Assembly: GCA_022820675.1 (NCBI GenBank)
Contig: JAJEFC010000015.1
Location: 1-64,000, forward strand
DNA length: 64,000 nucleotides
Direction: 5' to 3'
Source of the DNA: Vicinamibacteria bacterium
Lineage (GTDB): Bacteria; Acidobacteriota; Vicinamibacteria; Vicinamibacterales; UBA8438
Part shown: positions 22,488 to 53,632 of the stretch, piece after piece
How the letters are laid out: every line of letters begins with the position of its first letter
How positions within the stretch are numbered: position 1 is the first letter of the stretch
Program-made: the position numbers and the translations under genes
The notes under the pieces: model-generated
Databases searched by the model: none
Seen by the model: only the letters and a program-made list of their open reading frames with translations
What the model was told of the DNA's origin: nothing

Positions 22488-25400
22488 TCAGAACGTGAGC
22501 CTCGTGCCGACCTGGATCTGCCGGGCCGCGAAGGTCGAGCTGATCAGGCCGAACTCCCGGCTGTTGGGATTGTGATAGCGGCCGATGTCGAAGTTGGCGC
22601 GATTGAAGAGGTTGAAGGCATCCACGCGAATCTGCATCCGCGACCCGGCCGAGAACGGCAGGGCGATGTTCTTGCGCAGCCCGAGGTCCACCGACGCGTA
22701 CCACGGCCCGCTGATGGGCGACAGGGGCAGCGTTCCCGCCTCGAGCATGCCCGGGTTCCGGAAGATGTCGAGATTGCCGCCGCCGTCGTTGATCAGGCTG
22801 TCGTCGAACAGGGTCACGCGCCCGTCGGGATGGCGGTAGACGCCCGTGCGGCTCTGGAGCTCGGCGACCCCGATGCCGTCGAGATGGACGGTGTTGACCC
22901 GCGCCCGCGACCCGCGGTTGATGGTGCCCCGTTGGGAGACGATGTTGATCACCTCGCCGGAACGGATCCTGAGGAACCCGCTCAGCCCCCATCCCCCGAC
23001 GATGGAGCTCAGCAGGCCGCGGTCGTCCAGCCAGCGCCGCCCTTCGCCCACGGGTATCTCCCACACCCAGTTGGCGTTGATGGTGTGGGTGATGTCGGAA
23101 TCGGAGCGCATGACCTCGAGCTCGGGCTGGGCGTTGTCGAACAGGGCGCTGAAATTCGACTGGCTGCCGCCGAAGTTCGTCATCGCCTGCCCCAGGGTGT
23201 AGTTGAGCTGCGCGGTGAACCCCGAGCGCCATGCCCTTCGCAGCTCGAGCTGGAGCGCGTTGTACTCGGAGAAGGCGTGATTGCCGACGACGTCGCCGAC
23301 GAAGGTGTTCGGGTTGGTGTAGAAGTAGCCGATCGGCAGCGTCGCCCCGAACGCCTCCCCGCCCTCGCCGGCGAAGAAGAACCGCCGGTTGGGGGCCAGG
23401 AAGCCGCCGATGTACTGCCCGATCTCGCCGTTCCTGATCCAGTTCTGCACGGCGCCGAAGTCCAGGTAGCCGCCCAGGCCGAGCCGGGGGAAGACCAGCA
23501 GCGGCTCGCCGATTCCGGGGTGCCCGTTGGCGGCGAGGTTCCGCTGGGCACGCCGGAAGTCGTCCACGAAGGCTTCCGGCAGCAGGAGCTGGTTCAGGTC
23601 GATGGCCCGGACGAGGTCGGTGCCGCGGTTGCCGACGTAGCGCACCTCGATCGCGGTGTCGCGCAGGGCCTCGACCTGCCAGCCGACGTTCCACTGCTGC
23701 ACGTACGGGGTCCGCAGGTCGGGATCGAAGGTGAAGAGGGCGGCGGTGGGATCGGCCAGGATGCCGTCCCGGGCCGTCCGCGGTATCTTGAACTCGGGCT
23801 CCGGCACGGGAACGAGCCCGCCGCCGCTGACGGTGCCGCGGAGCCCCGGCAGGAACACGTCCTGGGTCAGGCCGGCGTTGGCGCCGATCGCGTTCAATGC
23901 CGTGGTCATGTTGTTGTCGAGCACGTAGCTCAGGGCGTAGCCGCCGCGCACGACCATCCTGTCCGTCAACCGGTGGGCCACGCCGAGGTTCGGCGCGAAG
24001 TTGTTCCAGTCGCGGTTGAAGAAGGGCCTGCGGTGGGACGACCCGGCGAAGTCCACGACGGCGTCGGGGTCGAGCACCGCGTCGACCCCGCCCACCGGCA
24101 GTAGCGCCAGGCCCTGCGCCTCGTCCGGCACGCCGTGCAGCTCCCACCGGACGCCCATGGTCAGGCTCGTGTCCGGGGCGACCCGCCACGTGTCGCCGGC
24201 GTAGAGGTGGAGAAAGTCCTGGTTCAGCACCCTTCTCTCCGTGGCCCCGTCCACGAACCCCGAGGTCGTCGAGGAGACGTTGAAGATCTGATAGGCCGAG
24301 TCGACGACGCCGCCGAGCGTCGCCAGCAGCCCCGCGGCCGCGCCCAGCTCGTCGGACGAGATCCCGCCGGGGAACAGCGCGGGGACCAGCGGATCGGGGT
24401 TCCCGGTCCCGAAGCCGAGCCCGTAGCTCGGCAGCAGCCCCCCGTCGTTGAACGCATCGACCCGCGTGCGCCGAAAGCCGCCGCCCAGCCTGACCGTGTG
24501 CGCCCCCCTGACCCACGTCAGGCTGTCGCTCGCCTCCAGGTTCAGGACGTCGCGTCCCTGGTCGAGGAAGTTCCGGACGGGATTGGCGAACGCCCCGAAG
24601 CTGAGCTGGTGGCCGCCGGGGAAGGTCTCGTTGTTGACGAACGCCACGCCGTAGGTCTGGGCGCCGAACCGCGCCTCGTTCACGACGCTCGGGCCGAGCG
24701 TGCTGCTCAGGGTGAACGACCCGAGCCTGCGGTCCGAGCTCTGACCCGCGCCGGGCAGGCCGGGGTACACCGAGTCGATGCCGTTGAACACGGAGTTCGG
24801 CAAATCGAAGCGGAACTGGTGGAAGGTCCCGGTCGCCGAATGCCTCGGGTCGATCACGTAGTCTCCCCGGAAGATCAACCAGTCGGAGGTGTTCTCGTTC
24901 GAGGCGTTGAAGCGGTACCCGGCCGTGTTCCGCCCGTCGCCCACGCTGGCGTCGTTGGGCGCCGGGGTCATGTCGACCAGCGACCGGATGACGGGATCGG
25001 GGCCGATGCCCGTCAGCCGGTGCAGGTTCACCGTGGCGACCTGGCCGTTGTCCTGCCTGACGTAGCTGAAGTCGCCCGCGCGCGCCGAGTCCGTCAGGAC
25101 GTGCCGCACGACCGACGAGGTCGCGGGCTCCCGCTCCTCCTCGTAGTTGACGAAGAAGAAGAACTTGTCCCTGACGAGGGGCCCGCCGACGTTGACGCCG
25201 AACTCGTGGACGCGGGTCCGCTCCTTCTCGAGTCCCGCCGCCTTGTTGAAGTAGCTGTTGGCGTTGAGGGCCTCGTTCCGGTGGTAGAAGAACATCTCCG
25301 AGTTGAAGGTGTTGCTGCCGGAACGGGTCACGAACTGGGTCTGCGAGGCCCCGAGGCCGGCGTCAACGTCCGAGTTCGCGGTCGTGATGTTGATCTCGTC

Positions 25401-26090
25401 GATGAAGCTCTCCTTGAGGGGGATGATCCCGAACAGGGAGTCCGTCCGGATGAAGCCGTCCTGGTTGTTGACGCCGTCCAGGGTGAAGTTGTTGTAGGTC
25501 CCCCGCGTGCCGTTGATGGAGGCGGTGCGCGCGCCGCCCGGGCCGGTCACGCCCGCCTGGGTGAGGGCGAGCTGGACGACGGAGCGCCCGTTCAGCGGAA
25601 GCTCGCCGACCTGCTCGCGGCTGAGGTTGGTGTTGATCTCGGCGTTGACCGTGTTCATCAGCGACTGCGCCTCGGCCGCGGAGACGAGCACCGTCTCGGC
25701 CACCCCCCCGACCTCGAGGACGACGTCGATGGACGTGGGCGCGCTCACGACGACCCGGACGCCCTCGATCACGGTGGTGCTGAAGCCCGGCACCGCCGCC
25801 GCGACCCGGTAGGTTCCCGCGGGGACCTGCGGGAACAGGTACAGGCCGCGATCGTTGGTGAAGGCCTCCCGCGCCACGTTCGTGTCGACCTCGGTCATGG
25901 TCACCGCCGCGCCGGGGATGACGCCGCCGGCTTCATCCTGCACGGTTCCCTCGACTCGGGACATGAGGGTCTGTGCGGTGGGCGGCGTGGCGGTGGCCAG
26001 GAGGAGTCCCGTGGCGAACGCAATCGTCTTGGGGCCGGTGGCGCGAAGGCTGGCGTGGCGGAGGATGCTCTGAATCACTGTGTCTCCCAT
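22488..26090 (-). CDS. TonB-dependent receptor, Oar-like, with carboxypeptidase-regulatory-like N-terminal domain
   Basis: 1200 residues. The ATG at 26090 is preceded by GGGAGC. After a signal peptide comes a carboxypeptidase-regulatory-like beta domain (SRVEGTVQDEAGGVIPGAAV to GTYRVAAAVPGFSTT), then a plug (LPLNGRSVVQLALTQAGV, LDGVNNQDGF) and a large barrel ending in an aromatic (RQIQVGTRLTF). This is the Oar-type family abundant in acidobacteria and myxobacteria, used for import of large substrates or protein export. No partner TonB or ExbBD genes are nearby. It appears intact. Confidence 0.92.
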   Translation of the reverse strand: MGDTVIQSILRHASLRATGPKTIAFATGLLLATATPPTAQTLMSRVEGTVQDEAGGVIPGAAVTMTEVDTNVAREAFTNDRGLYLFPQVPAGTYRVAAAVPGFSTTVIEGVRVVVSAPTSIDVVLEVGGVAETVLVSAAEAQSLMNTVNAEINTNLSREQVGELPLNGRSVVQLALTQAGVTGPGGARTASINGTRGTYNNFTLDGVNNQDGFIRTDSLFGIIPLKESFIDEINITTANSDVDAGLGASQTQFVTRSGSNTFNSEMFFYHRNEALNANSYFNKAAGLEKERTRVHEFGVNVGGPLVRDKFFFFVNYEEEREPATSSVVRHVLTDSARAGDFSYVRQDNGQVATVNLHRLTGIGPDPVIRSLVDMTPAPNDASVGDGRNTAGYRFNASNENTSDWLIFRGDYVIDPRHSATGTFHQFRFDLPNSVFNGIDSVYPGLPGAGQSSDRRLGSFTLSSTLGPSVVNEARFGAQTYGVAFVNNETFPGGHQLSFGAFANPVRNFLDQGRDVLNLEASDSLTWVRGAHTVRLGGGFRRTRVDAFNDGGLLPSYGLGFGTGNPDPLVPALFPGGISSDELGAAAGLLATLGGVVDSAYQIFNVSSTTSGFVDGATERRVLNQDFLHLYAGDTWRVAPDTSLTMGVRWELHGVPDEAQGLALLPVGGVDAVLDPDAVVDFAGSSHRRPFFNRDWNNFAPNLGVAHRLTDRMVVRGGYALSYVLDNNMTTALNAIGANAGLTQDVFLPGLRGTVSGGGLVPVPEPEFKIPRTARDGILADPTAALFTFDPDLRTPYVQQWNVGWQVEALRDTAIEVRYVGNRGTDLVRAIDLNQLLLPEAFVDDFRRAQRNLAANGHPGIGEPLLVFPRLGLGGYLDFGAVQNWIRNGEIGQYIGGFLAPNRRFFFAGEGGEAFGATLPIGYFYTNPNTFVGDVVGNHAFSEYNALQLELRRAWRSGFTAQLNYTLGQAMTNFGGSQSNFSALFDNAQPELEVMRSDSDITHTINANWVWEIPVGEGRRWLDDRGLLSSIVGGWGLSGFLRIRSGEVINIVSQRGTINRGSRARVNTVHLDGIGVAELQSRTGVYRHPDGRVTLFDDSLINDGGGNLDIFRNPGMLEAGTLPLSPISGPWYASVDLGLRKNIALPFSAGSRMQIRVDAFNLFNRANFDIGRYHNPNSREFGLISSTFAARQIQVGTRLTF

Positions 26091-26305
26091 GCGAGCTCCC
26101 TGGGCCGCCTTGATGCTCGGCTGAGCCGGCTCACGGAACATCCCCTCCGCGGGTCGTTTGCGGAGGGGGGTAGAGTCGACGCGCCTCATTAACGCGTTCC
26201 GCGGCCAGTACCGCCCGAGCCGACACGACGAGGCGGGGGCAGCGGTTGGCCCCGAGCGTCAGCCCCTCGGCTCTGGCGGATCACGACCGAGAACTCGGGT
26301 ACAGC

Positions 26306-26494
26306 TCAGGCCTGAGCGGACTCCACGCGCACTACGACGACGTCCGTGTCGTGGTACTGATAGTGACGCACCGACGAAGCGTAGTGCTTCAGGAGCCGGA
26401 GCGACACCTCCTGCTCCATCAGCCCGCCCGCCGCGGGCTGGCCCAGCACCGCCATCTGGTCCTCGAGTCGAGCCCGAACGCGCTGCCGAGTCAC
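26306..26494 (-). CDS. Small hypothetical protein coupled to the M28 peptidase gene
   Basis: 62 residues from a GTG at 26494 whose bases overlap the stop of the peptidase gene (GTGA), a usual sign of translational coupling. The sequence (MAVLGQPAAGGLMEQEVSLR, YHDTDVVVVRVESAQA) reads like a small soluble protein without signal peptide; no family is recognised. It may be a chance frame. The 26091-26305 remainder shows nothing. Confidence 0.35.
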   Translation of the reverse strand: MTRQRVRARLEDQMAVLGQPAAGGLMEQEVSLRLLKHYASSVRHYQYHDTDVVVVRVESAQA

Positions 26495-28419
26495 TCCAGC
26501 ATCAGGACCGCTCTGCGAAGCTCAGCCACGTGCACGGCCTTCACCGTGGATACTCCGGCGGTCAGGACGGGCTCCGTGTAGATCGGCCGCAGCCTTCCCG
26601 TCGCGTCGTACACCGCGTCGAGGGCCGCACGCAGCTCGATCACGTGCCGCTGTCTCACGGGAGTGACCCCGGCCCGAAGGACCGGATCGGTCCACTGCAT
26701 GGGCGGCAGGCCCTCCCGCGACCGCAGCGCGGCGATTCGCGCCCGCAACTCCCGGAAGTGGATCGCCTTGAGCGGAGTCGCCCCGGGCCTGATGGGGTAG
26801 TCGGTGAACGTTCGCCCACGGTCTGTCGGATCGAGGATGGTGACCGTGGAGGTGGCCGGCCTGCCGGCGGCGACGTCGGTGGCGAGCTCCGCGCCGAAAC
26901 CGAGGGTGACGGTCTCGCCGTGATCCGCCTCGGCGTCCGGGAGTGACACGACTTCCACCAGCGCGCGGGTCTTGCCGCCCTCGAGGGTGACGCTGGTCGG
27001 TACGCTGTAGTCCACGTCTGTCGCGCCGAGGCCGGGGGTGGCCGTCAGGCCGATCGACACCCGACGGGCGGGCGTGAGCGCCTCGCTCAAGCGCACCGGA
27101 ACGTTCACCGTTCCGCCCTCGGTCACGGTGTAGGCGGCCGATTCGAAGGCGACCGTCACCGATGGAGCGTCGTCCGCCTTCGAAACCTCCATCATGAACT
27201 CGAGCCCGAGCTTGGCGAAAAGCGCCGACTTCCGCCCGGTCGAGTCCATTCGGTCCAGGGTGTCGTAGGCGGTATGCATCGCGGGGTTGCGGTCCTCCAC
27301 GAGGGTCTCGAAGGGATGTACGGCGGGAACGCCCACCTCGGTCCAGGCGGCGTGGTCCGAGCACGCGTAGCCGCAGGCCGTGTCGCCGAAGGTGATTTCG
27401 TGAGGCCCGGGTCCGTTGTACTCGTCGATGAGGTTCTTCACGAAGTTCGTCAAGTCGGTGCTCACGTAGTCGGTGACGAAGTACATGTCGTGGGGCGACC
27501 CCGAGAAGCCCGTCAGGTCCAGTTGCATTGCCGCCACGACGTTCTTCCCGGTGAGCTGGTACTCCCGCGCAATCGCACGGGAGCCGCGCAATCCGACCTC
27601 TTCCGCGGCGTAGGCGATGAGCTGCAGCGTTCGCTGCGGCCGGAAGCCGGAAGCGAGCACGACCCGCAGGACTTCCGACACCACGGCGATGCCCGACGCG
27701 TTGTCGTCCGCGCCGGGGGCCAATCGACCAGACACATTGATCGAGTCGAGGTGGCCCCCGAGCAGCACGATGTCGTCAGGGTGTACCGAACCCTCGATCG
27801 TCGCTATGACCGAGTCCTGCGCCCACGGATGTTCGAAGCGGGTGACCGAGAAGTCGCTTCGTCCGGAACGGTAACCTTCCCACTGCGCCTGCAGCGCAAG
27901 GGCGGCATGCTGCCCCTCCTGGGTGAGGTAGTATCGAGTGTCCATGTCTTGCAGCCATTCGATCGTGTCGACGATTCGCTCGGCGTCGACGAGCTCGAGG
28001 GCCGGTACAACGTGGACCTGCTGGTCGATTGCAGCCGGGGCGACCCCGGAGCGATCCAGGTATGTGCTGGAGTAGAGGGGATTGTCGGCCTCGGCCAGGG
28101 CGGCTGCGAGCGACCCGTGCAGCGTATACCCACCGCAGCGGCCCGCTTCGTCATGAAGCACGTGGTGCAGCGTCTCCTCGAGCTCGGGAAAGTACCGCGC
28201 TACCGCTCGGTCGTCGGAGGGACCGAGGATACGGAAGTCGCGAATCTGCTCCGGCGTCAGCGCGGAGTCGGCGAGCGCCCCCTGGAGGCCGGACGCTGAA
28301 TCGCGGTCGAAGACCATCCATTGGTCCTGGTTCTGTCCGGCCCTTGCTTCAACGATTTGGAGCAACAGGAGCGCGGCGGCGGCAATGGGGTACTGGAGGC
28401 ACAACACTCTTGTTCTCAT
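26491..28419 (-). CDS. Exported M28 zinc aminopeptidase with Calx-beta and ELR-repeat C terminus
   Basis: 642 residues. A signal peptide covers residues about 1-28. The peptidase M28 domain, residues about 190-410, has the expected metal and catalytic residues: His223 (GGHLDS), Asp238 or Asp239 (GADDNASG), Glu273/Glu274 (AAEEVG), Asp301 (QLDLTG) and His382 (HTAYDTLD). It should remove N-terminal residues from peptides outside the cytoplasm. A Calx-beta domain follows (about 417-530), then the 105-residue three-repeat module described elsewhere (26494-26808). The start at 28419 is chosen because the signal peptide begins there; an in-frame ATG lies at 28515. An M4 peptidase gene lies upstream on the same strand, suggesting joint use in protein breakdown. 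Confidence 0.9.
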   Translation of the reverse strand: MRTRVLCLQYPIAAAALLLLQIVEARAGQNQDQWMVFDRDSASGLQGALADSALTPEQIRDFRILGPSDDRAVARYFPELEETLHHVLHDEAGRCGGYTLHGSLAAALAEADNPLYSSTYLDRSGVAPAAIDQQVHVVPALELVDAERIVDTIEWLQDMDTRYYLTQEGQHAALALQAQWEGYRSGRSDFSVTRFEHPWAQDSVIATIEGSVHPDDIVLLGGHLDSINVSGRLAPGADDNASGIAVVSEVLRVVLASGFRPQRTLQLIAYAAEEVGLRGSRAIAREYQLTGKNVVAAMQLDLTGFSGSPHDMYFVTDYVSTDLTNFVKNLIDEYNGPGPHEITFGDTACGYACSDHAAWTEVGVPAVHPFETLVEDRNPAMHTAYDTLDRMDSTGRKSALFAKLGLEFMMEVSKADDAPSVTVAFESAAYTVTEGGTVNVPVRLSEALTPARRVSIGLTATPGLGATDVDYSVPTSVTLEGGKTRALVEVVSLPDAEADHGETVTLGFGAELATDVAAGRPATSTVTILDPTDRGRTFTDYPIRPGATPLKAIHFRELRARIAALRSREGLPPMQWTDPVLRAGVTPVRQRHVIELRAALDAVYDATGRLRPIYTEPVLTAGVSTVKAVHVAELRRAVLMLE

Positions 28420-28546
28420 CGAGTTGGCCTTGAGGAGCTTCGGATTGCCATGTCGCGACAAGCCCATGTCTTCTCTGCGCAGCCGCGGCGGCGAGATCCT
28501 CGGTAGTCGGTCCACCGCAGTGGTGGCGCCAGAGAAGCCGCGTCCC

Positions 28547-30415
28547 TCAATGAGCAGTTCCCGGCGGCAGGCCGACCGCGGCCAGCGCGTCTTCGACCGC
28601 TTGCTGGACGGAGGTGCCTGGCGCGAGGTCCGCCGCCGCCTGGCGGATGACGTCGGCGGCCAGCGGCAGTGACGTGGCCTGGGGCATCAGCTCCGTCAGC
28701 GCGCGGAAGAAGATCCGCTCGACGTGTTCGCGGTTGGCCGCGCCGGCGCCCTCGACGGCGAGCCCGGTGCCGAGGTTCGTCCCCCCTTCGATGGCGAGGT
28801 AGAACGCGTGGCTCAGGATCGTCGAGTTCCAGTGCTGGCCGCCGTAGCAGCACCGGTCCTGCCGCCAGGCAACCAGCTCTCCCTGGAGGAAGATGGCCCC
28901 CGAGAAGTAGAAGTAGCGGTCGTCGGCGGCCGCCGCGAACTCCCAGCGGAAGGGATAGGCCATGGCGTCTTGATTCGTCGACCATGGATCCGACAGCGAC
29001 CGGATCGTGCCTGCCGCGTGCTCGCTGCCGAACTCGTAGGTCCCCGCGGCGCCGGCCGCCTCATGAAAGAAGCCGGCCGAGACGGCGAAGATGTCCGAGT
29101 AGGCTTCATGGACGGCGCCCGCGTGGGAGGACGCCAGCACGAAGCGGCCGTCCGCGCACACGGCAGGGAGCGGTACCCATACCTCGGGTTTCACCTCGAT
29201 CGGGAAACGGGTCTCGGAGCAGGTATGCGTCTCGCCTTCCCACTCGAAGCTCGGGGGCCCGAGACGGCCGACGAGGTTCAGGTAGTCGACGAGGCCGCCC
29301 CCCGTCCGCTGGCTGACGGAGAAGTTGGTCAGGCCGTGCATCAGCTCGTGAGCGACCACGTGCAGTGAGACGAGCGGCTGAGTGGTCTCCGAGTCCGGCA
29401 CCCCGAGCTGGCCGAAGATGTACACGCCGTTCCCCTCCGGCCCGAACGGCGGGAACCAGGCAGAGGCGTTGGGGAAGCCGTTGTTGACGATGGCGACGAT
29501 GCGTCCGTTCTCGCCATCCAGCCCCTGCCACGCGTGCCGCCGTGCGAAGTAGTCGTAGGTCCAGCCCATGTGTGCGTGGCCGTCGACCACCGCGGGGTCG
29601 ACCCAGACGTTGTCGGCGTCGGTCGCGATGTCGTCCGACGTCCAGCGCTGGACGCCGGGCGGCCCCGGCTGGGTCAGCCTGTTGAGGCGCCCCCAGTCGA
29701 ACCCGGCGTCGAGGGTGACGATCTCGCCGGGCCGGAGGCGGTCGCGAGACTCGTAGCGCCCATCGTCGTGCGTCGTGCTGATCTTCTTCGTGTCGCCCAG
29801 GAACCCGGCGCCGGTCCCGACCGCGGACTGCGTGGCGAACGCCGCCTCCCGGTGCACCACGGCGCCGTCCGCGGCGGACACGAAGTAGGTGTAGGCGTCC
29901 TCCAGGGTCAGGCGGTACGTCAGCTCGTACGAGCCGTCGAACAGCGGCAGGATCACCAGTCCGGCCTCGCCGCGGCCCGCCGACGCCGCGCCCGTCCGCC
30001 GCATCACGTCCGCGTAGGCCTCCTCGGGGACCAGCACCGGGGCCGTCTCGACGTCGATGCCGGTGTAGACGGTGCCGAACAGCGAGACGGTCACGCCGCC
30101 CCGGTCGAGCTGCCGCGACACCCCGCCGCCGTGTACGCGGACGCCCTCGAACAGCTGCGCGAGGTACTCGTGGGTGCGGCCCGGCAGGGTGCGGTCGGCC
30201 TGACGGGACACGACGACGAGCTCACCGGTGCGCGCCATCGCGTCGACCGCGGCATCCCACCGCCGCAGCTCGTCGACGTCGGTCGCGTACCCGGCCGCCA
30301 CCGCGAGCACGGTGTTCGGCGGCTGGGACGCTACGGGCTGAGCGGCGGCGGCCAGAAACAAGATCGCCGCCGCCGTGGGACCAGCGATGGAAACGAGTCG
30401 TGTGCGAGCTGTCAT
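28547..30415 (-). CDS. Exported thermolysin-like M4 metalloprotease
   Basis: 622 residues; the ATG at 30415 has GAGGAA upstream. Signal peptide (about 1-30), propeptide (FTP/PepSY-like, to about residue 195), then the catalytic domain with the zinc motif HELMH (His356, Glu357, His360) and third ligand Glu437 in HEAYSDIF. The C-terminal helical half has the active-site His region (SHAFYLAIEGGTN). It should be an extracellular endopeptidase activated by removal of the propeptide. A candidate promoter element (30665-30692) lies about 250 bp upstream. A frameshifted paralogue is at 42040-43935. The M28 aminopeptidase follows on the same strand. Confidence 0.92.
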   Translation of the reverse strand: MTARTRLVSIAGPTAAAILFLAAAAQPVASQPPNTVLAVAAGYATDVDELRRWDAAVDAMARTGELVVVSRQADRTLPGRTHEYLAQLFEGVRVHGGGVSRQLDRGGVTVSLFGTVYTGIDVETAPVLVPEEAYADVMRRTGAASAGRGEAGLVILPLFDGSYELTYRLTLEDAYTYFVSAADGAVVHREAAFATQSAVGTGAGFLGDTKKISTTHDDGRYESRDRLRPGEIVTLDAGFDWGRLNRLTQPGPPGVQRWTSDDIATDADNVWVDPAVVDGHAHMGWTYDYFARRHAWQGLDGENGRIVAIVNNGFPNASAWFPPFGPEGNGVYIFGQLGVPDSETTQPLVSLHVVAHELMHGLTNFSVSQRTGGGLVDYLNLVGRLGPPSFEWEGETHTCSETRFPIEVKPEVWVPLPAVCADGRFVLASSHAGAVHEAYSDIFAVSAGFFHEAAGAAGTYEFGSEHAAGTIRSLSDPWSTNQDAMAYPFRWEFAAAADDRYFYFSGAIFLQGELVAWRQDRCCYGGQHWNSTILSHAFYLAIEGGTNLGTGLAVEGAGAANREHVERIFFRALTELMPQATSLPLAADVIRQAAADLAPGTSVQQAVEDALAAVGLPPGTAH

Positions 30416-30664
30416 TTTGTCGTTCCTCTATTCGCCGCCGGCAGAAACCGCAGGGCGGCAGACCAACGGCACACGAGCCTCGTCGACCGGCGCGTCCGCA
30501 ACGCTGCCGCCGGTCGCGAGGTCGGCCGACGACTGCCTCTTGAGGGCGGCTGTGGCGATCAGAAAGGAGGCCGGTGGTTGACGCCGTATCCTGAAGAACG
30601 ACGCGCCGCTTTCCCCGAGTCTGGCCTCGGGCGCACCGCGATCCTCCGCACCTGACTGTCTAGA

Positions 30665-30692
30665 GACGGATGGGTGGCGGAAACCGAACGGT
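30665..30692 (-). promoter_or_regulatory. Bipartite 28-bp element, copy a
   Basis: Reads ACCGTTCGGT-N10-CATCCGTC on the minus strand, directed at the M4 protease gene 250 bp downstream and just past the 3' end of the kinase gene. One of seven copies with an identical 10-bp spacer. Confidence 0.6.
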
Positions 30693-30706: not shown

Positions 30707-32956
30707 CTACGCGTCGCCCGCAACTGCGCCGCGAAGGGCCTCGGCGAACGCAGGTGCCGTCGGCGGGCGGTCCCGTCGCGGGGCGGACAGCACGGACATC
30801 GCCAAGGCGGCGGCCGCGTGAGTGGCGAGATCCAGCGGCCGGCCGGCGGGGCGGACGCGGCGTCGTCGTATCCGTTGCGTCACCTCGTCGGCGTCGTCGC
30901 CGGCGAAAGGATGCTCACCGGAGACCATCTCGTAGAGCACCACGGCCAGCGACCAGACGTCGTCGGCCTCTTCGGCCGGCCGGCCGGAGAGAATCTCGGG
31001 CGATGCGTAGCGGAGCGTGCCGCCCACGACCCCACCGCCGTTCGCCTCGCGGGCCAGGCCGAAGTCCAGCAGCTTCGGCGAGCCGCCGGCCGTGAAGCCG
31101 ATGTTGCTCGGCTTGATGTCCCCGTGCAGGTACCCGGCATCGTGCAGCGCCGCGAGGGCGCCGGCCAACGCCTCGGCAATCGAGAGCGCCTCGGGGGCCG
31201 GCAACGGACCGCGTCGCAGCCGGTCGGCCAGCGTCCCGCCGGCCAGGTACTCGACGACGAGGAACGGCCGGCCCCGCCAGGACTCGATGCCGTGGATCTG
31301 GGCGACCGCCGGATGCGCGACCTCCGCCATCGCCCACGCTTCCGGCTTGAGTCCCATCAGACCCGGAACGGACAGGCCCGTCAGCGTCTTGACCGCCACG
31401 TTGCGCTCGAGCCGGAGGTCTCGCGCCAGGTACGCCGCCCCCATCCCCCCGGCCCCCAAGAGACGCGTCAACCGGAACTTGCCGGCGAGGGTCTTCGGGA
31501 CCTCCGATTCGACGTACGGGGACCCGCAGCCGCAGGCGGGCGCCTGGGCCGCCTCGACGACGCACCCGCACACGGGGCACTCGTCCGCGGTCGCCTCCTC
31601 CGGCGACGGGTCTTCCGCCGGGCGCATCATGCGCAGCCGTCCCAGGGCCAGCCCCGCGGCCGCGCCGAGCCCCTCGAGGAAGTGCAGGTCGGCGGGCCGC
31701 ACGAGCCGGTCGTCGAACCGGCGGCCGACGACCAGCGCCCCGATCAGCTCGCCCCCCGGACCGGGCACCGGCACGACGGCGTCGGCCGCGGTCTCGACCA
31801 CCCACGCCGCCTCGTCCCGGGGCAGCACCTCGAAGAGCGAGGACGGGTCCGCCGGATGGACGCGCAACGTCCCCCCGGCCGACTCCAGCATGTGGACGAT
31901 GGCCGACGTGCGTCGCAGGCGTGTGCCTGCGGCGTCAGGCGCCCGCAGGGCCGAGAGGTGCGGGCCGGGGTCGATTGCGGCCACGAGCACGGCGGGTGAC
32001 CCGCAGCCGCGCTTGACCGCCCGGGTCACCGCCCGGCTGACCGTCTTGATGCTTCCGGCGTACGCCAGCGCCGCCGCCGCGTTGGCCAGGGCCCGCTTCT
32101 GGTCCGTCGCCTCCGGGTGCGTCCAGGCGTCGAGACGGCGCAGGAGCCGCTCCCGGCCGAGGGCGGCGAGCAGCAGGATGCCGGCCGCGGCGAACAGCGA
32201 CCGTGCCAGCGGGTCCGCGGCCAGCGCGCCCACCGTGCGCTCCGGACGGCTCGCCGCCAGCCAGCCCAGGCCCAGGACCGGTGCGGCCACTGCCGCCTGC
32301 AGCAGGCCGGGCCGCGTCAGCAGCCATCTGTAGCAGGCCCGCACCACCTCCCGGACGTGGGGCACCCGCACCGCGAGCACCGAGTACCACAGCAGGGCCA
32401 TTCCCGGGAAACGCATCACCTCGAGCACGAGCACGGTCGGCGACCACTGGTAGTTGGCTATCCAGAACCCCGGCGTGAGCGCCTGGGCGAGGTCGTACGC
32501 CGTGGCCAGCCCGACGTGCATCAGGAACCCGGCGCTGAACAGCACGACCCGCCGCATCTCCTCGGCCGAGGCCGTGTGCGCGCGCAGCGCGACGACGACC
32601 ACCGCCGCCAGCTCCAGCAGGTCCAGGGCGACGACCGACCCGTCGAAGACGAGAGGGACCAGCGCCTCCAGATGGCCCGCTTGCCCGAGCTGGAGCGTCA
32701 CCGCGCCCGCAGCCCAGAGCGCGAAGCCGGCCGCTACGCAAACCGGGGCCATGCGGCGGGCGAGGTCGTCGAGCCGGGCTCGGCGATGGAGCCGCGGGCA
32801 CTCACGGGCGAACAGCCACAGGAACGCCGGCGCGAACACGAACGAGGGTAGGTACAGGTAGAGGAAGAGCCTGCCCGATGCGGGCGGGTCCAGGAGGAAG
32901 GCCGAGAGCTGCGCGGGCGGCGGCATTTCCAGGAAGAACGCCGGGAGCATGTACAT
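30707..32956 (-). CDS. Transmembrane Ser/Thr protein kinase, C-terminal part after an amber codon
   Basis: 749 residues from the first ATG after the interruption, but the same frame is open from 33121, so this is the main part of one gene whose start lies at 33412. It has about seven membrane helices to residue 270, a GAF-like sensory domain (about 290-440), a zinc-ribbon (CPVCG...CGCG), then the kinase: Gly-loop LGAGGMGAAY, Lys in VAVKTL, catalytic loop LHGDIKPSN (HGD rather than HRD), and LLDFGLA. It should phosphorylate targets in response to a signal seen by the membrane or GAF part. The sigma factor gene lies upstream on the same strand; ECF sigma factors paired with such kinases are known. 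Confidence 0.8.
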   Translation of the reverse strand: MYMLPAFFLEMPPPAQLSAFLLDPPASGRLFLYLYLPSFVFAPAFLWLFARECPRLHRRARLDDLARRMAPVCVAAGFALWAAGAVTLQLGQAGHLEALVPLVFDGSVVALDLLELAAVVVVALRAHTASAEEMRRVVLFSAGFLMHVGLATAYDLAQALTPGFWIANYQWSPTVLVLEVMRFPGMALLWYSVLAVRVPHVREVVRACYRWLLTRPGLLQAAVAAPVLGLGWLAASRPERTVGALAADPLARSLFAAAGILLLAALGRERLLRRLDAWTHPEATDQKRALANAAAALAYAGSIKTVSRAVTRAVKRGCGSPAVLVAAIDPGPHLSALRAPDAAGTRLRRTSAIVHMLESAGGTLRVHPADPSSLFEVLPRDEAAWVVETAADAVVPVPGPGGELIGALVVGRRFDDRLVRPADLHFLEGLGAAAGLALGRLRMMRPAEDPSPEEATADECPVCGCVVEAAQAPACGCGSPYVESEVPKTLAGKFRLTRLLGAGGMGAAYLARDLRLERNVAVKTLTGLSVPGLMGLKPEAWAMAEVAHPAVAQIHGIESWRGRPFLVVEYLAGGTLADRLRRGPLPAPEALSIAEALAGALAALHDAGYLHGDIKPSNIGFTAGGSPKLLDFGLAREANGGGVVGGTLRYASPEILSGRPAEEADDVWSLAVVLYEMVSGEHPFAGDDADEVTQRIRRRRVRPAGRPLDLATHAAAALAMSVLSAPRRDRPPTAPAFAEALRGAVAGDA

Positions 32957-33121
32957 CGGCGGGAGCGTGGCCTTGAGCAGGTAATAGACCCCCAGCAGCC
33001 GGGTCCGCCGGTCGCGGCGCCCGACGGACAGCAGCAGGCAGGCGCTCGCCGAATGGCCGAGGAGCTTGATGGCGAAGTAGATGCCGAGCTCGCCATGCTC
33101 CCGCTGATAGTCTCCCCAGGC

Positions 33122-33412
33122 CTACGGCAGCAGCAGCAGCGTCGCGGCTACCTCCACGACGGCGAGGGCGATGAGGACCTGCGAGGCGCGGCGGCCGAAG
33201 GCGCCGCCGAGAGTGGCGGCGCCGGCCGCCGCCTCACCCGCCGGCTCGCGGCCGGTGACGGCCGGGGCGAGGGCGCGGAGGTTGGCGAGGGCGCGGCGGT
33301 TGGCGGGTGTGGCCAGCTCTTCGCACCGCTCCCACTGAACCTCCTGGTCCCGCGTGAGGGCGTCGGCCACCTCGACGACGACATCGTCACGATCTTCGCT
33401 GTTGGCCGACAT
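33122..33412 (-). CDS. N-terminal piece of the same kinase, ended by TAG
   Basis: 96 residues from the ATG at 33412 (GGAG seven bases upstream; another ATG at 33430). A soluble helical part (WERCEELATPANRRALANLR) leads into a membrane helix (VLIALAVVEVAATLLLLP) and then TAG at 33122-33124. The frame continues without shift into AWGDYQREHGELGIYFAIKL and the kinase. In the duplicate at 52640-52863 the same position is TGG within CCGTGGGCCTGGGGAG, so Trp was probably changed to stop here. Read alone it could be mistaken for an anti-sigma factor. Whether the halves work as two proteins is unknown. Confidence 0.65.
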   Translation of the reverse strand: MSANSEDRDDVVVEVADALTRDQEVQWERCEELATPANRRALANLRALAPAVTGREPAGEAAAGAATLGGAFGRRASQVLIALAVVEVAATLLLLP

Positions 33413-33508
33413 ACCGTTGCTCCGCTTCATCGAGGTTCCCGTCGCATCGAGTTCGACCAAGCCTCCGTCGCGCTCCTCATCCAATGAACGCGTCAGTCAC
33501 GGGATCAA

Positions 33509-33536
33509 GACGGATGAACCGCGAGAACCGAACGGT
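33509..33536 (-). promoter_or_regulatory. Bipartite 28-bp element, copy b
   Basis: ACCGTTCGGT-N10-CATCCGTC on the minus strand, between the sigma factor stop (33650) and the kinase start (33412), about 97 bp before the start codon. It would give the kinase its own promoter inside the cassette. Confidence 0.6.
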
Positions 33537-33649
33537 GGGACGAGCGGGAGAGCGAGAGGCTGCTTCGTGGCGCCCGGGAGTCGCGAGGGCCGGCGCGGCC
33601 GGCCGATCTGCACCGGCAGGTGGGCAGCGCGCCGCCGGCTGGCGGTGGG

Positions 33650-34273
33650 TCATGCCTCCGGCATGACGCTGCTCAACCGCACCAGCGCGCGCCGGAGCGC
33701 CATGCGCGCCGCGTCCGGTGACGACAGTCGCTCGAGCAGGGCCAGTTGCCGGAAGCTGTAGCCGCACTCGACGCGGCCGACGACCAGGCGCCGGTGGCGC
33801 GGCGTCAACTGCTTCAGGCCTTCCAGGTAGCGCTCCCACGACTCGTCGTCGAGAACCTGCCGAAGCTGCGGCGCCGCCTCGTCGGACAGCAGGAGCGGCT
33901 GACTCGGCTCGATCACGCTCTGGCGGAGAATCGCCCGCCGCAGGTGGTCGCCTATCCGGTTCTGGACGGCCCGCCGCAGGTAGATGCGCATCGCCGTGCC
34001 GTGCGCCGACCGGAAGCTCGATACCCGCGCGAGCGTGCGGTGCAGGGCGTCCTGGACCAGATCGCTGGTGTCCACCCCGTCGCGGGCCCAGACCGGCAGC
34101 CGGTCCCGTGCCCAGCGCCGGAGCCACGGCGCATGACGCGTGAGCAGTGCGCCGAGGGCGGATCGACTGCCCCGCCGGACGCGCTCCAGCAGGCGCTGTT
34201 CGGAACCCGAATTGTCCGGACTGGGCTCGCCCGGATCCTGCCGCGACGGTGAGACGCGTGCCGATCGCACCAC
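33650..34273 (-). CDS. ECF-type RNA polymerase sigma factor, copy 1
   Basis: 207 residues. Region 2 is seen in LLTRHAPWLRRWARDRLPVW and GVDTSDLVQDALHRTLARV; region 4 helix-turn-helix in LTPRHRRLVVGRVECGYSFR and QLALLERLSSPDAARMALRR. The start is uncertain: GTG 34273 aligns with a GTG in copy 2, while the frame is open to a TTG at 34309. No anti-sigma gene follows; a transmembrane kinase does, suggesting control by phosphorylation as known for kinase-linked ECF groups. Copy 2 at 52864 is nearly identical through the core. Element c precedes it, element b follows it. Confidence 0.88.
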   Translation of the reverse strand: MVRSARVSPSRQDPGEPSPDNSGSEQRLLERVRRGSRSALGALLTRHAPWLRRWARDRLPVWARDGVDTSDLVQDALHRTLARVSSFRSAHGTAMRIYLRRAVQNRIGDHLRRAILRQSVIEPSQPLLLSDEAAPQLRQVLDDESWERYLEGLKQLTPRHRRLVVGRVECGYSFRQLALLERLSSPDAARMALRRALVRLSSVMPEA

Positions 34274-34357
34274 ACGTCTATCATGCCTGGAAGCGCATCG
34301 TCTCGCCAAGGAGCCGTCGGAGAACCGACGCGCAGCTCAACTTTTTTTCCGGCCAAG

Positions 34358-34385
34358 ACCGTTCGGTTTTCGGTCCTCATCCGTC
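34358..34385 (+). promoter_or_regulatory. Bipartite 28-bp element, copy c
   Basis: ACCGTTCGGT-N10-CATCCGTC on the plus strand, 85 bp upstream of and divergent from sigma copy 1. Read rightward it faces the permease-prefix fragment and, farther on, the barrel gene at 35302. An A-rich tract (TTTTTTT on the plus strand, 34342-34348) lies between it and the sigma gene, as at copies d and g. Confidence 0.55.
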
Positions 34386-34539
34386 TTAACAGTCGTTCGA
34401 TGCAGGCGCTTGCACGGTGGCCTGTACGGCCGGCGGGTGACCGGGTAGCGCCCAGGGTAGCGCCCCCAAGGTCGGCGCCATCCCTCGGTACGCGGTGACG
34501 ATCGGCAGGTGCCGGCCGCGCGGCGGACCCCATCACGAT

Positions 34540-34791
34540 GAGGTCATGTTTTCGCAGCTGAGCTCCTTTGTAATGACGTGCGTTTTTCGTGATCGCTTCG
34601 AGGACTCGCTGGAAGAGGAGGTGCGCTTTCACCTCGACGCTCAGGCGCAGGATCTGGTCCGCGTCGGGGTGCCGCCGGCGGAGGCGGCGCGCCGCGTGCG
34701 GGCGCAGTTTGGCAGCATCGAAGCCATGAAGGACGAATGCCTGCAGGCGCGCGGCCTGCGGAGTCACCGACGGCGGTATCCGACCGGATGA
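34540..34791 (+). pseudogene. Orphan N-terminal prefix of an acidobacterial ADOP/FtsX-like permease
   Basis: About 80 residues (FRDRFEDSLEEEVRFHLDAQ, VPPAEAARRVRAQFGSIEAM, KDECLQARGL) match the cytoplasmic prefix that precedes the first membrane helix in acidobacterial orphan macrolide-exporter-like permeases. The frame ends at 34791 with no membrane part following, so the permease itself is missing. A second such fragment is at 43953-44130. The flanks to 35001 hold nothing else. Confidence 0.6.
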
Positions 34792-41490: not shown

Positions 41491-41518
41491 ACCGTTCGGT
41501 CCTGCGTGCTCATCCGTC
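41491..41518 (+). promoter_or_regulatory. Bipartite 28-bp element, copy d
   Basis: ACCGTTCGGT-N10-CATCCGTC on the plus strand next to the sigma relic, with a T-tract (TTTTTT) just before it as at copies c and g. Read rightward it points to the M4 pseudogene, 520 bp away. Confidence 0.55.
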
Positions 41519-41530
41519 TTCAGTAGTTGT

Positions 41531-43935: not shown

Positions 43936-43952
43936 CGGCCGCGACGCCAGTC

Positions 43953-44130: not shown

Positions 44131-44194
44131 TCGGTTCACCGGCGCCAGAGGTGCGACTTGGCGGCGGAGAAGGACGCCTGCGGGGGCAAGGAAG

Positions 44195-48517: not shown

Positions 48518-48602
48518 GGCGTTCATCTCCGTCTCGGTCCGGGCGTCAGGCCGTGGCCGGCGTTGCCCCCGCGCACCGGACCGTCGCTTTCAACCATCTA
48601 GA

Positions 48603-48630
48603 GACGGATGGACGCTGGAAACCGAACGGT
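48603..48630 (-). promoter_or_regulatory. Bipartite 28-bp element, copy e
   Basis: ACCGTTCGGT-N10-CATCCGTC on the minus strand, 86 bp before the start of the caspase-Sel1 gene and directly after a relic of the kinase 3' end. Same order as kinase end, element a, M4 gene at 30.7 kb. Confidence 0.65.
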
Positions 48631-48644
48631 GTGGACGGAAAAAG

Positions 48645-48960
48645 TTGCACATCTTCCGCGATGGCGGTGCGGAGTGCGGTCGGCGTCCCCGCGCCGACCG
48701 CCGAGGCGGACAGCACAGACGGACACTACAGGCTGCGACGTGGAACTCGGTCGCAGGTCGTCGGGGTCGGGCGCGGCGGCGCCGTATCCCCCGCATTGGC
48801 CCCCGGCGCGGGCATCTGTCAACCCTGCCCCGGCCGGAAGCCGTCGGCCTGGACCAGATCTCTGGTGTCCGGCCCCTCGCGGGCCCAGACCGGCAGTCGG
48901 ACACGCCCCTCGCCCGCGGCTACCGCGTAGGCGACGCCCTCCTCGCGCGGCTTTCGCCAA
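48645..48960 (-). pseudogene. Decayed sigma-kinase cassette
   Basis: Near the element the minus strand reads GIRRRRARP... and CCPPRRSARGRRPHSAP, matching the last 45 residues of the kinase (RIRRRRVRP..., APRRDRPPTAP). Farther upstream (48847-48905) DNA matches the sigma gene segment that encodes VWARDGVDTSDLVQDA. The middle is gone, so only the two ends of a cassette remain, fused. Confidence 0.6.
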
Positions 48961-49355: not shown

Positions 49356-51107
49356 CTAGCGGTATGGTCGGGTCGCCAGGAGCCCCGTCAGGATCAGCCC
49401 GCCACTGCCCGGGTACGACTGCGTGGCGATGTAGCTGTAGCCGTGCCGCGTCCTCACGAGGGGTGCATCGAGGATCAGCCACTCGTAGCCGGGGCGGACG
49501 AAGTCGTGCACCTTGAGCGCCGAGAATCCCCCGCTGCCGTCGTTCAGCCAGACGAGCGGCTGGTTCGGTCGCAGGTCTCCGGCCGTCGGGGTCATCACGA
49601 AGTCCGCCGCCCCGTCGCCGTTGAAGTCGAGGACATCCACCCAGAACGCCCATGGCGCCTGGGTCGCCACCCTCGCGTTGCCGCTCGATTGCTCGTGCGG
49701 CTGCAGCCGGCGGGCAGTCTCGTCGACGAACGTGCCGTCGCCCCGGTTCATCAACAGTTGGACGAACCAGCCGTCGTAGAAGGGGTTCATTTGGGTCCCG
49801 ACGACGACCAGGTCGAGCCGGCCGTCGCCGTCCGCATCGAGCGTGGCGGCATCGAGACCGATGTGCCCGTGGGCGAACACCTCCGGCGACGGCAGGGGCG
49901 TCTTGTGCTGCTCGCGGAAGGCGCCAGCACGGTTCCAGAAGACGAACGAACCCGCGAGCCCGGGATACCCCTCTCCGACCGCGATCAGTTCCGGCAGCCC
50001 GTCGCCGTCGAGGTCCGTCAGCACCGTCCCCGTGATGGCGACGCCCCTGCGATCGTAGTTCAGGGTCTCGTCAGGGCCGACCGGCAGGTTCGACCGGTCG
50101 AGCGAGAACGTCTCGTCGCCGTGGTTCAGAAGCACGTAGGGCAGAACGAGGTGTTCTCCCCAGATGTTGCCGACGAGGATGTCGGGCGTCCCCAGGCCCC
50201 GGATGTCGCCGATCGCCGCCGAGTGCGAGAAGTCGGAGAGCCGCGGCAGCTCGCTTGTCGCGTCGCGCCAGCCGCCCCCGGGGCGCGACAGGTACAGGCG
50301 GTTCTGCTCCCCGGGGAACGGGTCGGTGTCCCAGCCGTGCCCGGCGATGAACATGTCCGGCAGCCCGTCGCCGTTCAGGTCGCCGAAGGGCGCCTTCCTC
50401 GGGCCGACGGTGTTCAGCGTGTCGACCGGGAACAGCTCGGCCGGCGCCCGCCTGAACCCGCCGTCGCCGTCGCCCAGGAAGACCCGTCCGGGTTGCGGGC
50501 GGTAGTTCGTCGCCGTGACGTCGCTCGTTGGATAGGTGTAGCCCAAGAGGACGAGGTCCTCGTTCCCGTCGCCGTCGAGATCCGTCGACGCGGAGTTGTG
50601 ACCATGAGGCCGGTAGCTCGGGTCGATGACCTCGATCGGGAGCATCGTGTAGTACGGCTCCAGCGACGGGGCGGGGTTCTCAAGGACTTCGACCGCCTCG
50701 CGCAGCTCCATGACGTGGGCGGCTCTGACGGGGGTGTGGCCTGTCAGGGTGCGATCCGTGTAGGCCGGCTGCAGCTGCCCCCTCGCGTCGTACACGCCAC
50801 GGAGCGCGGCGCGCAGTTCCGCGAGGTGGGCCCGCGTGATCATGGTTGCCCCGGGTGTCAGAACCGGGTCCGTCCACCGTACGGGCGCCAGTCCCTCACG
50901 GGCTCGAAGTCCCGCGACCCGCGCACGCAGCTCGTCGAAATGGACCGCCTTGATCGACGTCACGCCGGGACGGATGGGATGGTCGGTCCATCCCGCCGCC
51001 TGCAGTGCGACCGCCGGCGGCTGCGAGGCGCGGCTCAGGATCTGAGCCGCAACGTCGTCGGCCGAGACGATGGCAACAGCTACGAACGCGGTAGCAGCCC
51101 CACGCAT
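49356..51107 (-). CDS. Exported FG-GAP repeat protein with N-terminal ELR module, copy 2 (intact)
   Basis: 583 residues; the ATG at 51107 has a perfect AAAGGAGG site. Signal peptide (to about ADDVAAQ), then the three-repeat module at 50679-50990 (third repeat one residue short), then FG-GAP/VCBS propeller repeats with Ca-like loops (DLDGDGNEDLVL, DLNGDGLPDMFI, DLDGDGLPELIA, DADGDGRLDLVV, DFNGDGAADFVM). It is the unbroken paralogue of 39532-41306, in opposite orientation, sharing even the leader sequence (CCCAGACACGACGTCAGAA). A surface binding role is inferred. Element f lies about 180 bp upstream. Confidence 0.88.
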   Translation of the reverse strand: MRGAATAFVAVAIVSADDVAAQILSRASQPPAVALQAAGWTDHPIRPGVTSIKAVHFDELRARVAGLRAREGLAPVRWTDPVLTPGATMITRAHLAELRAALRGVYDARGQLQPAYTDRTLTGHTPVRAAHVMELREAVEVLENPAPSLEPYYTMLPIEVIDPSYRPHGHNSASTDLDGDGNEDLVLLGYTYPTSDVTATNYRPQPGRVFLGDGDGGFRRAPAELFPVDTLNTVGPRKAPFGDLNGDGLPDMFIAGHGWDTDPFPGEQNRLYLSRPGGGWRDATSELPRLSDFSHSAAIGDIRGLGTPDILVGNIWGEHLVLPYVLLNHGDETFSLDRSNLPVGPDETLNYDRRGVAITGTVLTDLDGDGLPELIAVGEGYPGLAGSFVFWNRAGAFREQHKTPLPSPEVFAHGHIGLDAATLDADGDGRLDLVVVGTQMNPFYDGWFVQLLMNRGDGTFVDETARRLQPHEQSSGNARVATQAPWAFWVDVLDFNGDGAADFVMTPTAGDLRPNQPLVWLNDGSGGFSALKVHDFVRPGYEWLILDAPLVRTRHGYSYIATQSYPGSGGLILTGLLATRPYR

Positions 51108-51245: not shown

Positions 51246-51288
51246 CCACGGGTCACCGTGCAAGCGTCTGCACCGAGCAGTTGTTCAA

Positions 51289-51316
51289 GACGGATGAGCA
51301 CCGGAAACCGAACGGT
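51289..51316 (-). promoter_or_regulatory. Bipartite 28-bp element, copy f
   Basis: ACCGTTCGGT-N10-CATCCGTC on the minus strand, directed at the intact FG-GAP gene 182 bp away, and divergent from a plus-strand sigma 5' relic. Confidence 0.6.
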
Positions 51317-52639: not shown

Positions 52640-52863
52640 CCCCAGGCCCACGGCAGCAGCAGCGTCGCGGCGATCCACCACGGCGAGGGCGATGAGGGCC
52701 TGCGAGGCGCGGCGCCCGAAGACGCCGCCGAGAGTGTCGGCGCCGCCGGCCGACGGCGCCTCTCCCGCCGGCTGGCTGCCGGTGACGGCCGGGGCGAGGG
52801 CGCGGAGGTTGGCGAGGGCGCGGAGGTTGGCGGGTGTGGCCAGCTCTTCGCGCCGCTCCCACG
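52640..52863 (-). pseudogene. N-terminal fragment of a second transmembrane kinase gene
   Basis: Directly after the sigma stop, the sequence resumes at TWERREELATPANLRALANL, corresponding to residues about 30-100 of the kinase at 33412. It runs to the first membrane helix (FGRRASQALIALAVV) before a 2-bp deletion and loss of similarity. It preserves TGG where the first copy has TAG. Element b and the kinase start are missing between sigma and this fragment. Confidence 0.7.
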
Positions 52864-53529
52864 TCAGCGGGGTTGTGTATCCGCCATGACGTTGCTCAGC
52901 CGCACCAGCGCGCGCCGGAGCGCCATGCGCGCCGCGTCCGGTGACGACAGTCGCTCGAGCAGGGCCAGCTGCCGGAAGCTGTAGCCGCACTCGATGCGGC
53001 CGACGACCAGCCGCCGGTGGCGCGGCGTCAACTGCTTCAGGCCTTCCAGGTAGCGCTCCCACGTCTCGTCGTCGAGAACCTGCCGAAGCTGCGGCCCCGC
53101 CTCGTCGGACAGCAGGAGCGGCTGGCTCGGCTCGATCACGCTCTGACGGAGAATCGCCCGCCGCAGGTGGTCGCCTATCCGGTTCTGGACGGCCCGCCGC
53201 AGGTAGATGCGCATCGCCGTGCTGTGCGCCGACCGGAAGCTCGACACCCGCGCGAGCGTGCGGTGCAGGGCGTCCTGGACCAGATCGCTGGTGTCCACCC
53301 CGTCGCGGGCCCAGACTGGCAGCCGGCCCCGCGCCCAGCGCCGGAGCCACGACGCGTGACGCGTGAGCAGCGCGCCGAGGGCGGATCGACTGCCCCGCCG
53401 GACGCGAGCCAGCAGGCGCTGCTCGGAATCTGAACCGTCAGGGTTGCGTCCCCGGTTGTCAGGACCGCTGGGTCCGCTCGCCTGCGGCGACACCGAGACG
53501 TTTGCCGGTCGCACCACCACCCCTATCAT
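52864..53529 (-). CDS. ECF-type RNA polymerase sigma factor, copy 2
   Basis: 221 residues from the ATG at 53529; the frame is also open to an ATG inside element g (53625). Regions 2 and 4 are intact and nearly identical to copy 1 (GVDTSDLVQDALHRTLARV; LTPRHRRLVVGRIECGYSFR). The C terminus differs (NVMADTQPR) because the gene is joined to a kinase fragment by deletion. It could still direct transcription but lacks its kinase partner. Its upstream side holds the T-tract and element g, as in copy 1. Confidence 0.85.
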   Translation of the reverse strand: MIGVVVRPANVSVSPQASGPSGPDNRGRNPDGSDSEQRLLARVRRGSRSALGALLTRHASWLRRWARGRLPVWARDGVDTSDLVQDALHRTLARVSSFRSAHSTAMRIYLRRAVQNRIGDHLRRAILRQSVIEPSQPLLLSDEAGPQLRQVLDDETWERYLEGLKQLTPRHRRLVVGRIECGYSFRQLALLERLSSPDAARMALRRALVRLSNVMADTQPR

Positions 53530-53602
53530 GCTGGAAGCGCGGCGGCCCGCCAAGGGTTTGCCTGAAGACGACCGCGCGCAGCTCAACTTTTTTTCCTGCC
53601 GA

Positions 53603-53630
53603 ACCGTTCGGTCTCCGGTGCTCATCCGTC
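53603..53630 (+). promoter_or_regulatory. Bipartite 28-bp element, copy g
   Basis: ACCGTTCGGT-N10-CATCCGTC on the plus strand, divergent from sigma copy 2 and 74 bp upstream of its ATG, with TTTTTTT at 53588-53594. Read rightward it faces the cupin gene at 54297. Confidence 0.55.
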
Positions 53631-53632
53631 TT

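What the first reader, a model, noticed from the sequence alone, without database searches (positions are those of the whole stretch)
30707..34273. ECF sigma factor plus transmembrane Ser/Thr kinase cassette driving exported effectors
Sigma gene, element b, multi-helix GAF kinase, element a, then an M4 protease. The same order (kinase end, element, effector) is seen in decayed form before the caspase-Sel1 gene at 48.6 kb. There is no anti-sigma gene. ECF groups controlled by kinase phosphorylation are known; here the cassette seems to have been copied repeatedly, each time next to a different exported protein gene, giving modular 'sensor plus effector' units.
Basis: partly seen in the sequence, partly recalled or inferred. 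Interest (0 to 1): 0.7.

Follow-up and report, generated by a model that had tools for sequence, protein, structure and literature searches.

The report
Kinase-paired sigma factor with its promoters
An acidobacterium carries many copies of a two-gene switch (a sigma factor plus a membrane protein kinase), and the short repeated DNA elements around it appear to be the switch's own promoters, each placed in front of a different, mostly secreted, protein; the kinase copy in this window is broken by a stop codon.

Summary
The kinase here carries an in-frame TAG (33122-33124; TGG in a paralogue) and is probably a pseudogene. The main new result is what the elements are. Both are copies of a bipartite motif, ACCGTTCGGTTTCC-N9-nCGTCT, laid out like an ECF promoter. 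Copies point at the kinase, the M4 protease, caspase-Sel1, an FG-GAP protein and other mostly signal-peptide-bearing genes. All 19 distant sigma-kinase loci tested (43-60% identity) have at least one copy: divergent from sigma, between sigma and kinase, or after the kinase. In a sister species a decayed kinase, the motif and the caspase-Sel1 gene keep the same order. Sigma homologues as distant as 40% across Acidobacteriota usually sit directly before a kinase, and these kinases share a ~50-residue N-terminal domain. The sigma keeps the acidic DxxD pair but reads DTSD, with Ser where EcfP/EcfK are phosphorylated. Best filed as a new variant of kinase-linked ECF systems; phosphorylation and promoter use are untested.

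The parts
33650..34309 (-). ECF sigma factor (219 aa from TTG 34309; 207 aa from GTG 34273); region 2.2 motif DTSD, Ser codon 34064-34066
   Evidence: Pfam Sigma70_r2 4e-10, NCBIfam sigma70-ECF; alignment A1, DTSD invariant; positions
30707..33412 (-). Membrane Ser/Thr kinase gene (900 codons; N-domain, multi-TM, GAF-like, four-Cys ribbon, kinase), interrupted by TAG 33122-33124; probable pseudogene
   Evidence: frames, paralogue has TGG, genome scan reports 1 TAG, Pkinase 2e-37, A2/A3 alignments, AF2 model of an intact paralogue
33122..33124 (-). in-frame TAG in the kinase gene
34358..34386 (+). promoter-like motif divergent from sigma (ACCGTTCGGTTTTCGGTCCTCATCCGTCT)
33508..33536 (-). element b = promoter-like motif between sigma and kinase, pointing at the kinase (about 100 nt to ATG 33412)
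30664..30692 (-). element a = promoter-like motif after the kinase, pointing at the M4 protease (250 nt to ATG)
28547..30415 (-). exported M4 (thermolysin-like) protease, proposed target of element a
   Evidence: Pfam
26491..28515 (-). exported M28 peptidase just downstream, probably same operon
   Evidence: Pfam M28 5e-37
22488..26189 (-). outer-membrane TonB-type receptor, next in the same orientation
   Evidence: Pfam OMP_b-brl_4, CarboxypepD_reg
41491..41519 (+). motif copy pointing at a frameshifted M4 protease gene (about 42040-44102 +); beside a truncated sigma 5' end
48602..48630 (-). motif copy pointing at the caspase-Sel1 gene (77 nt)
   Evidence: conserved in sister species L098
46586..48526 (-). 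exported caspase (C14) plus Sel1-repeat protein
   Evidence: Pfam C14 4e-36, Sel1 2e-96
48845..48909 (-). decayed sigma fragment
   Evidence: repeat family D10, translation
51288..51316 (-). motif copy pointing at an FG-GAP protein (182 nt)
49356..51107 (-). exported FG-GAP-repeat protein
   Evidence: Pfam FG-GAP_3 6e-34
53603..53631 (+). motif copy divergent from the second sigma
52864..53538 (-). second sigma copy (88% identical)
52673..52862 (-). remnant of kinase N-terminus after the second sigma

Best explanation
A kinase-linked ECF regulatory module. One drives the partner kinase (feedback), others drive neighbouring genes divergent from sigma or downstream of the kinase, in this genome mostly secreted proteases and outer-membrane proteins. 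The membrane kinase probably controls the sigma by binding it through its conserved ~50-residue N-terminal domain and phosphorylating it, the best candidate residues being the Thr/Ser of the DTSD motif in region 2.2. Repeated duplication and decay left promoter-plus-effector units that can be served in trans by other sigma copies; the kinase copy in this window is itself broken. Shown here: gene pairing, motif, its position and conservation, the genes it points at, the stop codon. Inferred: that this sigma reads the motif, phosphorylation, the docking role of the N-domain, the signal.
For: Pairing: 24/26 sigma loci are followed by the kinase, often with overlapping genes; at ~40% identity most loci are still sigma-kinase. 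Motif: 15 exact hits in own genome vs 0 control. Independent -10 test: CGTC at the right offset in 25/25 intergenic sites on cassette contigs vs 1/30 for the same -35 13-mer in other genomes (the 25 share ancestry). EM on 19 distant loci: score 211 vs shuffles 64 +/- 9; 204 vs 73-109 for upstream regions of other genes, and the trained model passes 29/56 cassette segments vs 7/88 controls, every locus having at least one. The junction copy occurs mainly where sigma and kinase do not overlap. In G006/G007 the sigma lies in an apparent operon headed by the motif. The motif is kept before the caspase-Sel1 gene in a sister species although the kinase is decayed in both. Targets carry signal peptides by a crude rule, 14/17 vs 27/92. 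DTSD invariant. N-domains of near and far sigma-paired kinases are homologous, hhalign 97%, E 1.5e-11; in 21 genomes every hit lies in this kinase family or a remnant of it.
Against: No expression, binding or phosphorylation data. The link of motif to this sigma rests on synteny and co-occurrence. The acidic DxxD pair is retained, so the EcfP charge-restoring switch is not required. A Thr at the second position is also present in sigma homologues without an adjacent kinase (ETED; L183-L185, L189). Two window copies (34358, 53603) and C431:9749 have no clear gene within 600 nt. The EM seed came from the same family and loci share ancestry. The genome is a MAG (441 contigs, 5.3% contamination).
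Confidence: 0.75

Rival explanations
1. The elements are promoters or operators read by another regulator, and the sigma-kinase pair merely neighbours them.
For: The core contains a short dyad (ACCG-TT-CGGT) that a repressor or activator could bind; no binding data exist; sigma itself seems to have a different, vegetative-looking upstream sequence (TTGGCG-N-CATGAT) conserved in its copies.
Against: The motif tracks the sigma-kinase family across genera, sits at three fixed places around it, has ECF spacing and a CGTC -10, and is near background in genomes without the close sigma.
Confidence: 0.12
2. The elements are a dispersed mobile repeat (MITE or REP-like) and the cassette copies are its passengers.
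For: Many copies, some with longer flanking homology to sigma upstream DNA, in a repeat-rich region with many gene fragments.
Against: In distant loci only the two short blocks are kept while flanks differ, with the same gap in 23 of 29 sites; orientation toward gene starts is consistent; the copies found lie at kinase or effector loci.
Confidence: 0.05
3. The kinase controls the sigma mainly by sequestration: its N-terminal domain acts as a membrane-tethered anti-sigma and kinase activity releases the sigma.
For: Conserved three-helix N-domain directly before the first membrane helix, shared among sigma-paired kinases of otherwise different architecture; DxxD retained, so unphosphorylated sigma should be able to bind core.
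Against: No sequence match to known anti-sigma domains at E<1; in some far kinases the domain is followed directly by the kinase domain (L191).
Confidence: 0.25

Closest known systems
ECF43: EcfP-PknT (Vibrio parahaemolyticus) and EcfK-PknS (Xanthomonas citri)
   Same: ECF sigma encoded next to a transmembrane Hanks-type kinase, no anti-sigma, Ser/Thr at region 2.2 (PMC8999054, PMC13147305)
   Different: ECF43 replaces DxxD by uncharged residues (STTA, QTTA; QATE in EcfK); here DTSD keeps both acids. Kinase architecture here: N-domain, ~9-10 long helices, GAF-like region and Cys ribbon before the kinase domain.
Other kinase-linked ECF groups (ECF59, 61, 62, 217, 283)
   Same: Described as keeping a DAED-like motif with Ser/Thr nearby and as encoded with an STPK gene (PMC8999054)
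   Different: Model members listed are mainly planctomycetal; group models were not available here, so membership was not tested.
Anti-sigma-regulated ECFs (RpoE type)
   Same: sigma2-sigma4 layout, ECF-type -35/-10 promoter, DxxDxxQ(E/D)
   Different: No anti-sigma gene; a kinase takes its place.

Membership tests
ECF (group 4) sigma factors | region 2 and region 4 only, ~200 aa | tested here: met
   Sigma70_r2 4e-10, TIGR02937 above cutoff; profile matches solved ECF sigmas across both domains
Kinase-linked ECF systems (general) | conserved adjacency to a Ser/Thr kinase gene and absence of an anti-sigma gene | tested here: met
   24/26 close loci, most far loci
Kinase-linked ECF systems (general) | sigma activated by phosphorylation by the partner kinase | not testable with these tools
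   only candidate residues known
ECF43 | acidic DxxD of region 2.2 replaced by uncharged residues with a phosphorylatable Thr (QTTA/STTA) | tested here: not met
   DTSD invariant in A1; definition from PMC8999054 and PMC13147305
ECF59/61/62/217/283 | score against the published group models | not tested
   models not available; classification paper not held
Hanks-type Ser/Thr kinases | Pkinase domain with catalytic Lys, HxD..N and DFG | tested here: met
   Pkinase 2e-37; K, HGD-K-N and DFG conserved in A2; kinase fold of the modelled paralogue. The window's own gene is interrupted upstream of this domain
ECF-type promoters | -35 and -10 blocks about 16-17 nt apart, CGTC-like -10, upstream of genes | tested here: met
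ECF-type promoters | transcription by the cognate sigma | not testable with these tools
   needs in vitro transcription

The most novel reading that the evidence does not exclude
A phylum-wide acidobacterial class of sigma-kinase switches in which a small N-terminal kinase domain docks the sigma factor (anchor and activator in one protein), acting on a sigma that keeps its acidic DxxD pair, so by a mechanism different from EcfP, with a portable promoter that recruits secreted effectors in trans.
Probability: 0.3. Interest if true: 0.68.

Novelty: new variant of a known kind. Interest (0 to 1): 0.52.

Why it matters
It gives a clear, testable target promoter and regulon for a kinase-linked ECF group that keeps its DxxD pair, where the mode of control is an open question. 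It also names a short kinase domain conserved among sigma-paired kinases as a candidate sigma-docking site, and shows how a promoter can spread with copied cassettes to put new secreted proteins under one switch.

Tried and rejected
Element as an intrinsic terminator: the A/T-run lies on the wrong side of the dyad and copies point at gene starts. Direct genome-contig scan with the single sigma found nothing; the alignment scan worked. PADLOC hits of the kinase are generic kinase matches. At ~40% sigma identity a permissive motif regex gave mostly noise, so the motif is claimed only for the closer family. The ECF classification paper is not held; a search for Vicinamibacter plus ECF sigma plus kinase returned no paper. 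The Foldseek search of the kinase model shows only kinase folds among the 50 listed hits, nothing on the sensor part.

Full report
OBSERVATION. The sigma gene (33650-34309, minus) is an ECF sigma factor by Pfam and NCBIfam. The kinase has a strong Pkinase match. The paralogue on contig C141 has TGG at that place, and the genome-wide profile scan also reports one TAG in this copy. The M4 protease, elements a and b, and the decayed copy at 48.6 kb are present. The window holds a second sigma (52864-53538, 88% identical) followed by a kinase remnant.

THE PAIR. The own genome (6.55 Mb, 441 contigs) has eight sigma genes of this family. In the family, 10 of 28 genomes have them. Of 26 sigma loci, 24 have the kinase directly downstream on the same strand and two run into contig ends; in many the two genes overlap. 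No anti-sigma gene appears among the listed neighbours. In a sample of 396 genomes of the phylum, 56 have a match, with a clear drop from >=258 bits to <=205 bits outside the cassette family. Of 20 loci examined from that search, most again have a Ser/Thr kinase directly after sigma; four (L183, L184, L185, L189) do not, and have ETED in region 2.2.

THE ELEMENTS. Read on the strand that points at the next gene, every copy is ACCGTTCGGT(T/C)(T/C)(T/C)(C/G)...CCGTCT or close to it, i.e. two blocks 16 or 17 nt apart, the layout of an ECF promoter. Window copies point at the kinase (100 nt), the M4 protease (250 nt), caspase-Sel1 (77 nt) and FG-GAP (182 nt), at a frameshifted M4 gene, and, less clearly, away from the two sigmas. 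Elsewhere in the genome they point at a DUF481 protein, small exported proteins, a CarboxypepD/TonB-type protein, another M4, and a family of exported FGE-sulfatase plus peptidoglycan-binding proteins (C94, C141, C195, C422). C195 shows no kinase nearby, so it would be served in trans.

TESTS OF THE ELEMENTS. (a) A pattern with both blocks gives 15 hits in the own genome and 0 for the reversed control. (b) Using the -35 block alone, CGTC stands at the right distance in 25/25 intergenic cassette sites and in 1/30 sites of other genomes; the 25 are related by descent, so the contrast is descriptive. (c) On 19 more distant loci an EM with two blocks recovers CnTGTyCGGTTTC-N10-ACGTCT; score 211 against 64 +/- 9 (max 82.5) for 40 shuffles, and 204 against 73-109 for upstream regions of other genes in the same loci. 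The trained model passes 29/56 cassette segments and 7/88 control segments; all 19 loci have at least one site; 23 of 29 have the same gap. The site between sigma and kinase is found mainly where the genes do not overlap; two passing junction hits (L054, L058) fall in overlapping genes and may be spurious. (d) In G006 and G007 the motif heads an apparent operon of two exported proteins (one a reprolysin-like metalloprotease) and sigma, with the kinase following; in G007 a second motif copy lies before the kinase. (e) In sister species G009 a decayed kinase, the motif and the orthologous caspase-Sel1 gene stand in the same order.

TARGETS. By a crude signal-peptide rule 14 of 17 targets are exported against 27 of 92 genes in the same loci (p about 6e-5, with paralogues counted). 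The M4 gene is followed by an M28 peptidase and a TonB-type receptor in one orientation, which suggests extracellular protein breakdown and uptake (inference). In other genera the motif stands before genes that look like ring-hydroxylating dioxygenases (that naming is from reading the translations, not a profile search), so export is not a general rule.

MECHANISM. Reviews state that kinase-regulated ECF groups are mostly inferred from gene neighbourhood, that ECF43 lacks the DAED motif and is phosphorylated there, and that other groups keep a DAED-like motif with Ser/Thr nearby (PMC8999054; PMC8103513; PMC13147305). Here the motif is DTSD in all 16 aligned sequences and TTSD in the two most distant family members. 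The Ser is at the position of the phosphorylated Thr in EcfP (STTA) and EcfK (QATE). The acidic pair is kept, so the unphosphorylated protein may bind core polymerase. The kinase family has conserved catalytic residues and four conserved Cys; a model of an intact paralogue (mean pLDDT 72, pTM 0.43) shows three N-terminal helices, about nine or ten long helices, a GAF-like region and the kinase domain. GAF is matched by profile in a far homologue. The N-terminal ~50 residues are homologous between near and far sigma-paired kinases that differ in the rest of their architecture (hhalign 97.4%, E 1.5e-11). In a search of 21 genomes this domain was found only in this kinase family or its remnants. 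I take it as the likely sigma-docking part; that is inference.

LIMITS. No experimental data. The genome is a fragmented MAG with 5.3% estimated contamination. The stop codon could be a sequencing or population variant. Motif and sigma are linked by synteny and co-occurrence only.

Noticed in passing
window 26494-28515(-), 39100-39399, 39649-39948, 50690-51000, 51793-52092: Exported proteins of different kinds share a domain of repeats like 'GVTPIRAVHxxELRxRIxALRxxxGLxxxxWTDPVL'; no Pfam match falls on it. Similar ends occur in exported LRR-like proteins of C31 and G009 (L026, L055).
   Followed up: partly
window 34588-34761 and 43961-44134: Two fragments resembling the N-terminus of an ADOP-type permease (EEEVRFHLDAQ...), 79% identical, both beside cassette debris; the naming is from memory.
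   Followed up: no
window 35042-35171, 36278-36577, 54942-55241: Duplicated pieces of an exported protein gene (GDPDLQGIWV...), one truncated.
   Followed up: no
window 42040-44102: Second M4 protease gene, split between frames (41881-42483 and 42525-44102); apparently frameshifted.
   Followed up: partly
window 4611-4801: Direct repeat of 82 nt, two copies 109 nt apart and 99% identical.
   Followed up: no
window 15393-15638: Array of short repeats (12/21-nt steps) encoding a RIDDVNA-type coiled-coil-like stretch.
   Followed up: no
L183, L184, L185, L189: Related sigma factors with ETED in region 2.2 and no adjacent kinase, next to a decarboxylase-like gene; a natural comparison group for kinase dependence.
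   Followed up: no
G000 C94, C141, C195, C422, C145; G009 C412: Several paralogous units in one genome with the motif before the same family of exported FGE-sulfatase plus PG-binding proteins (C145 effector not resolved).
   Followed up: partly
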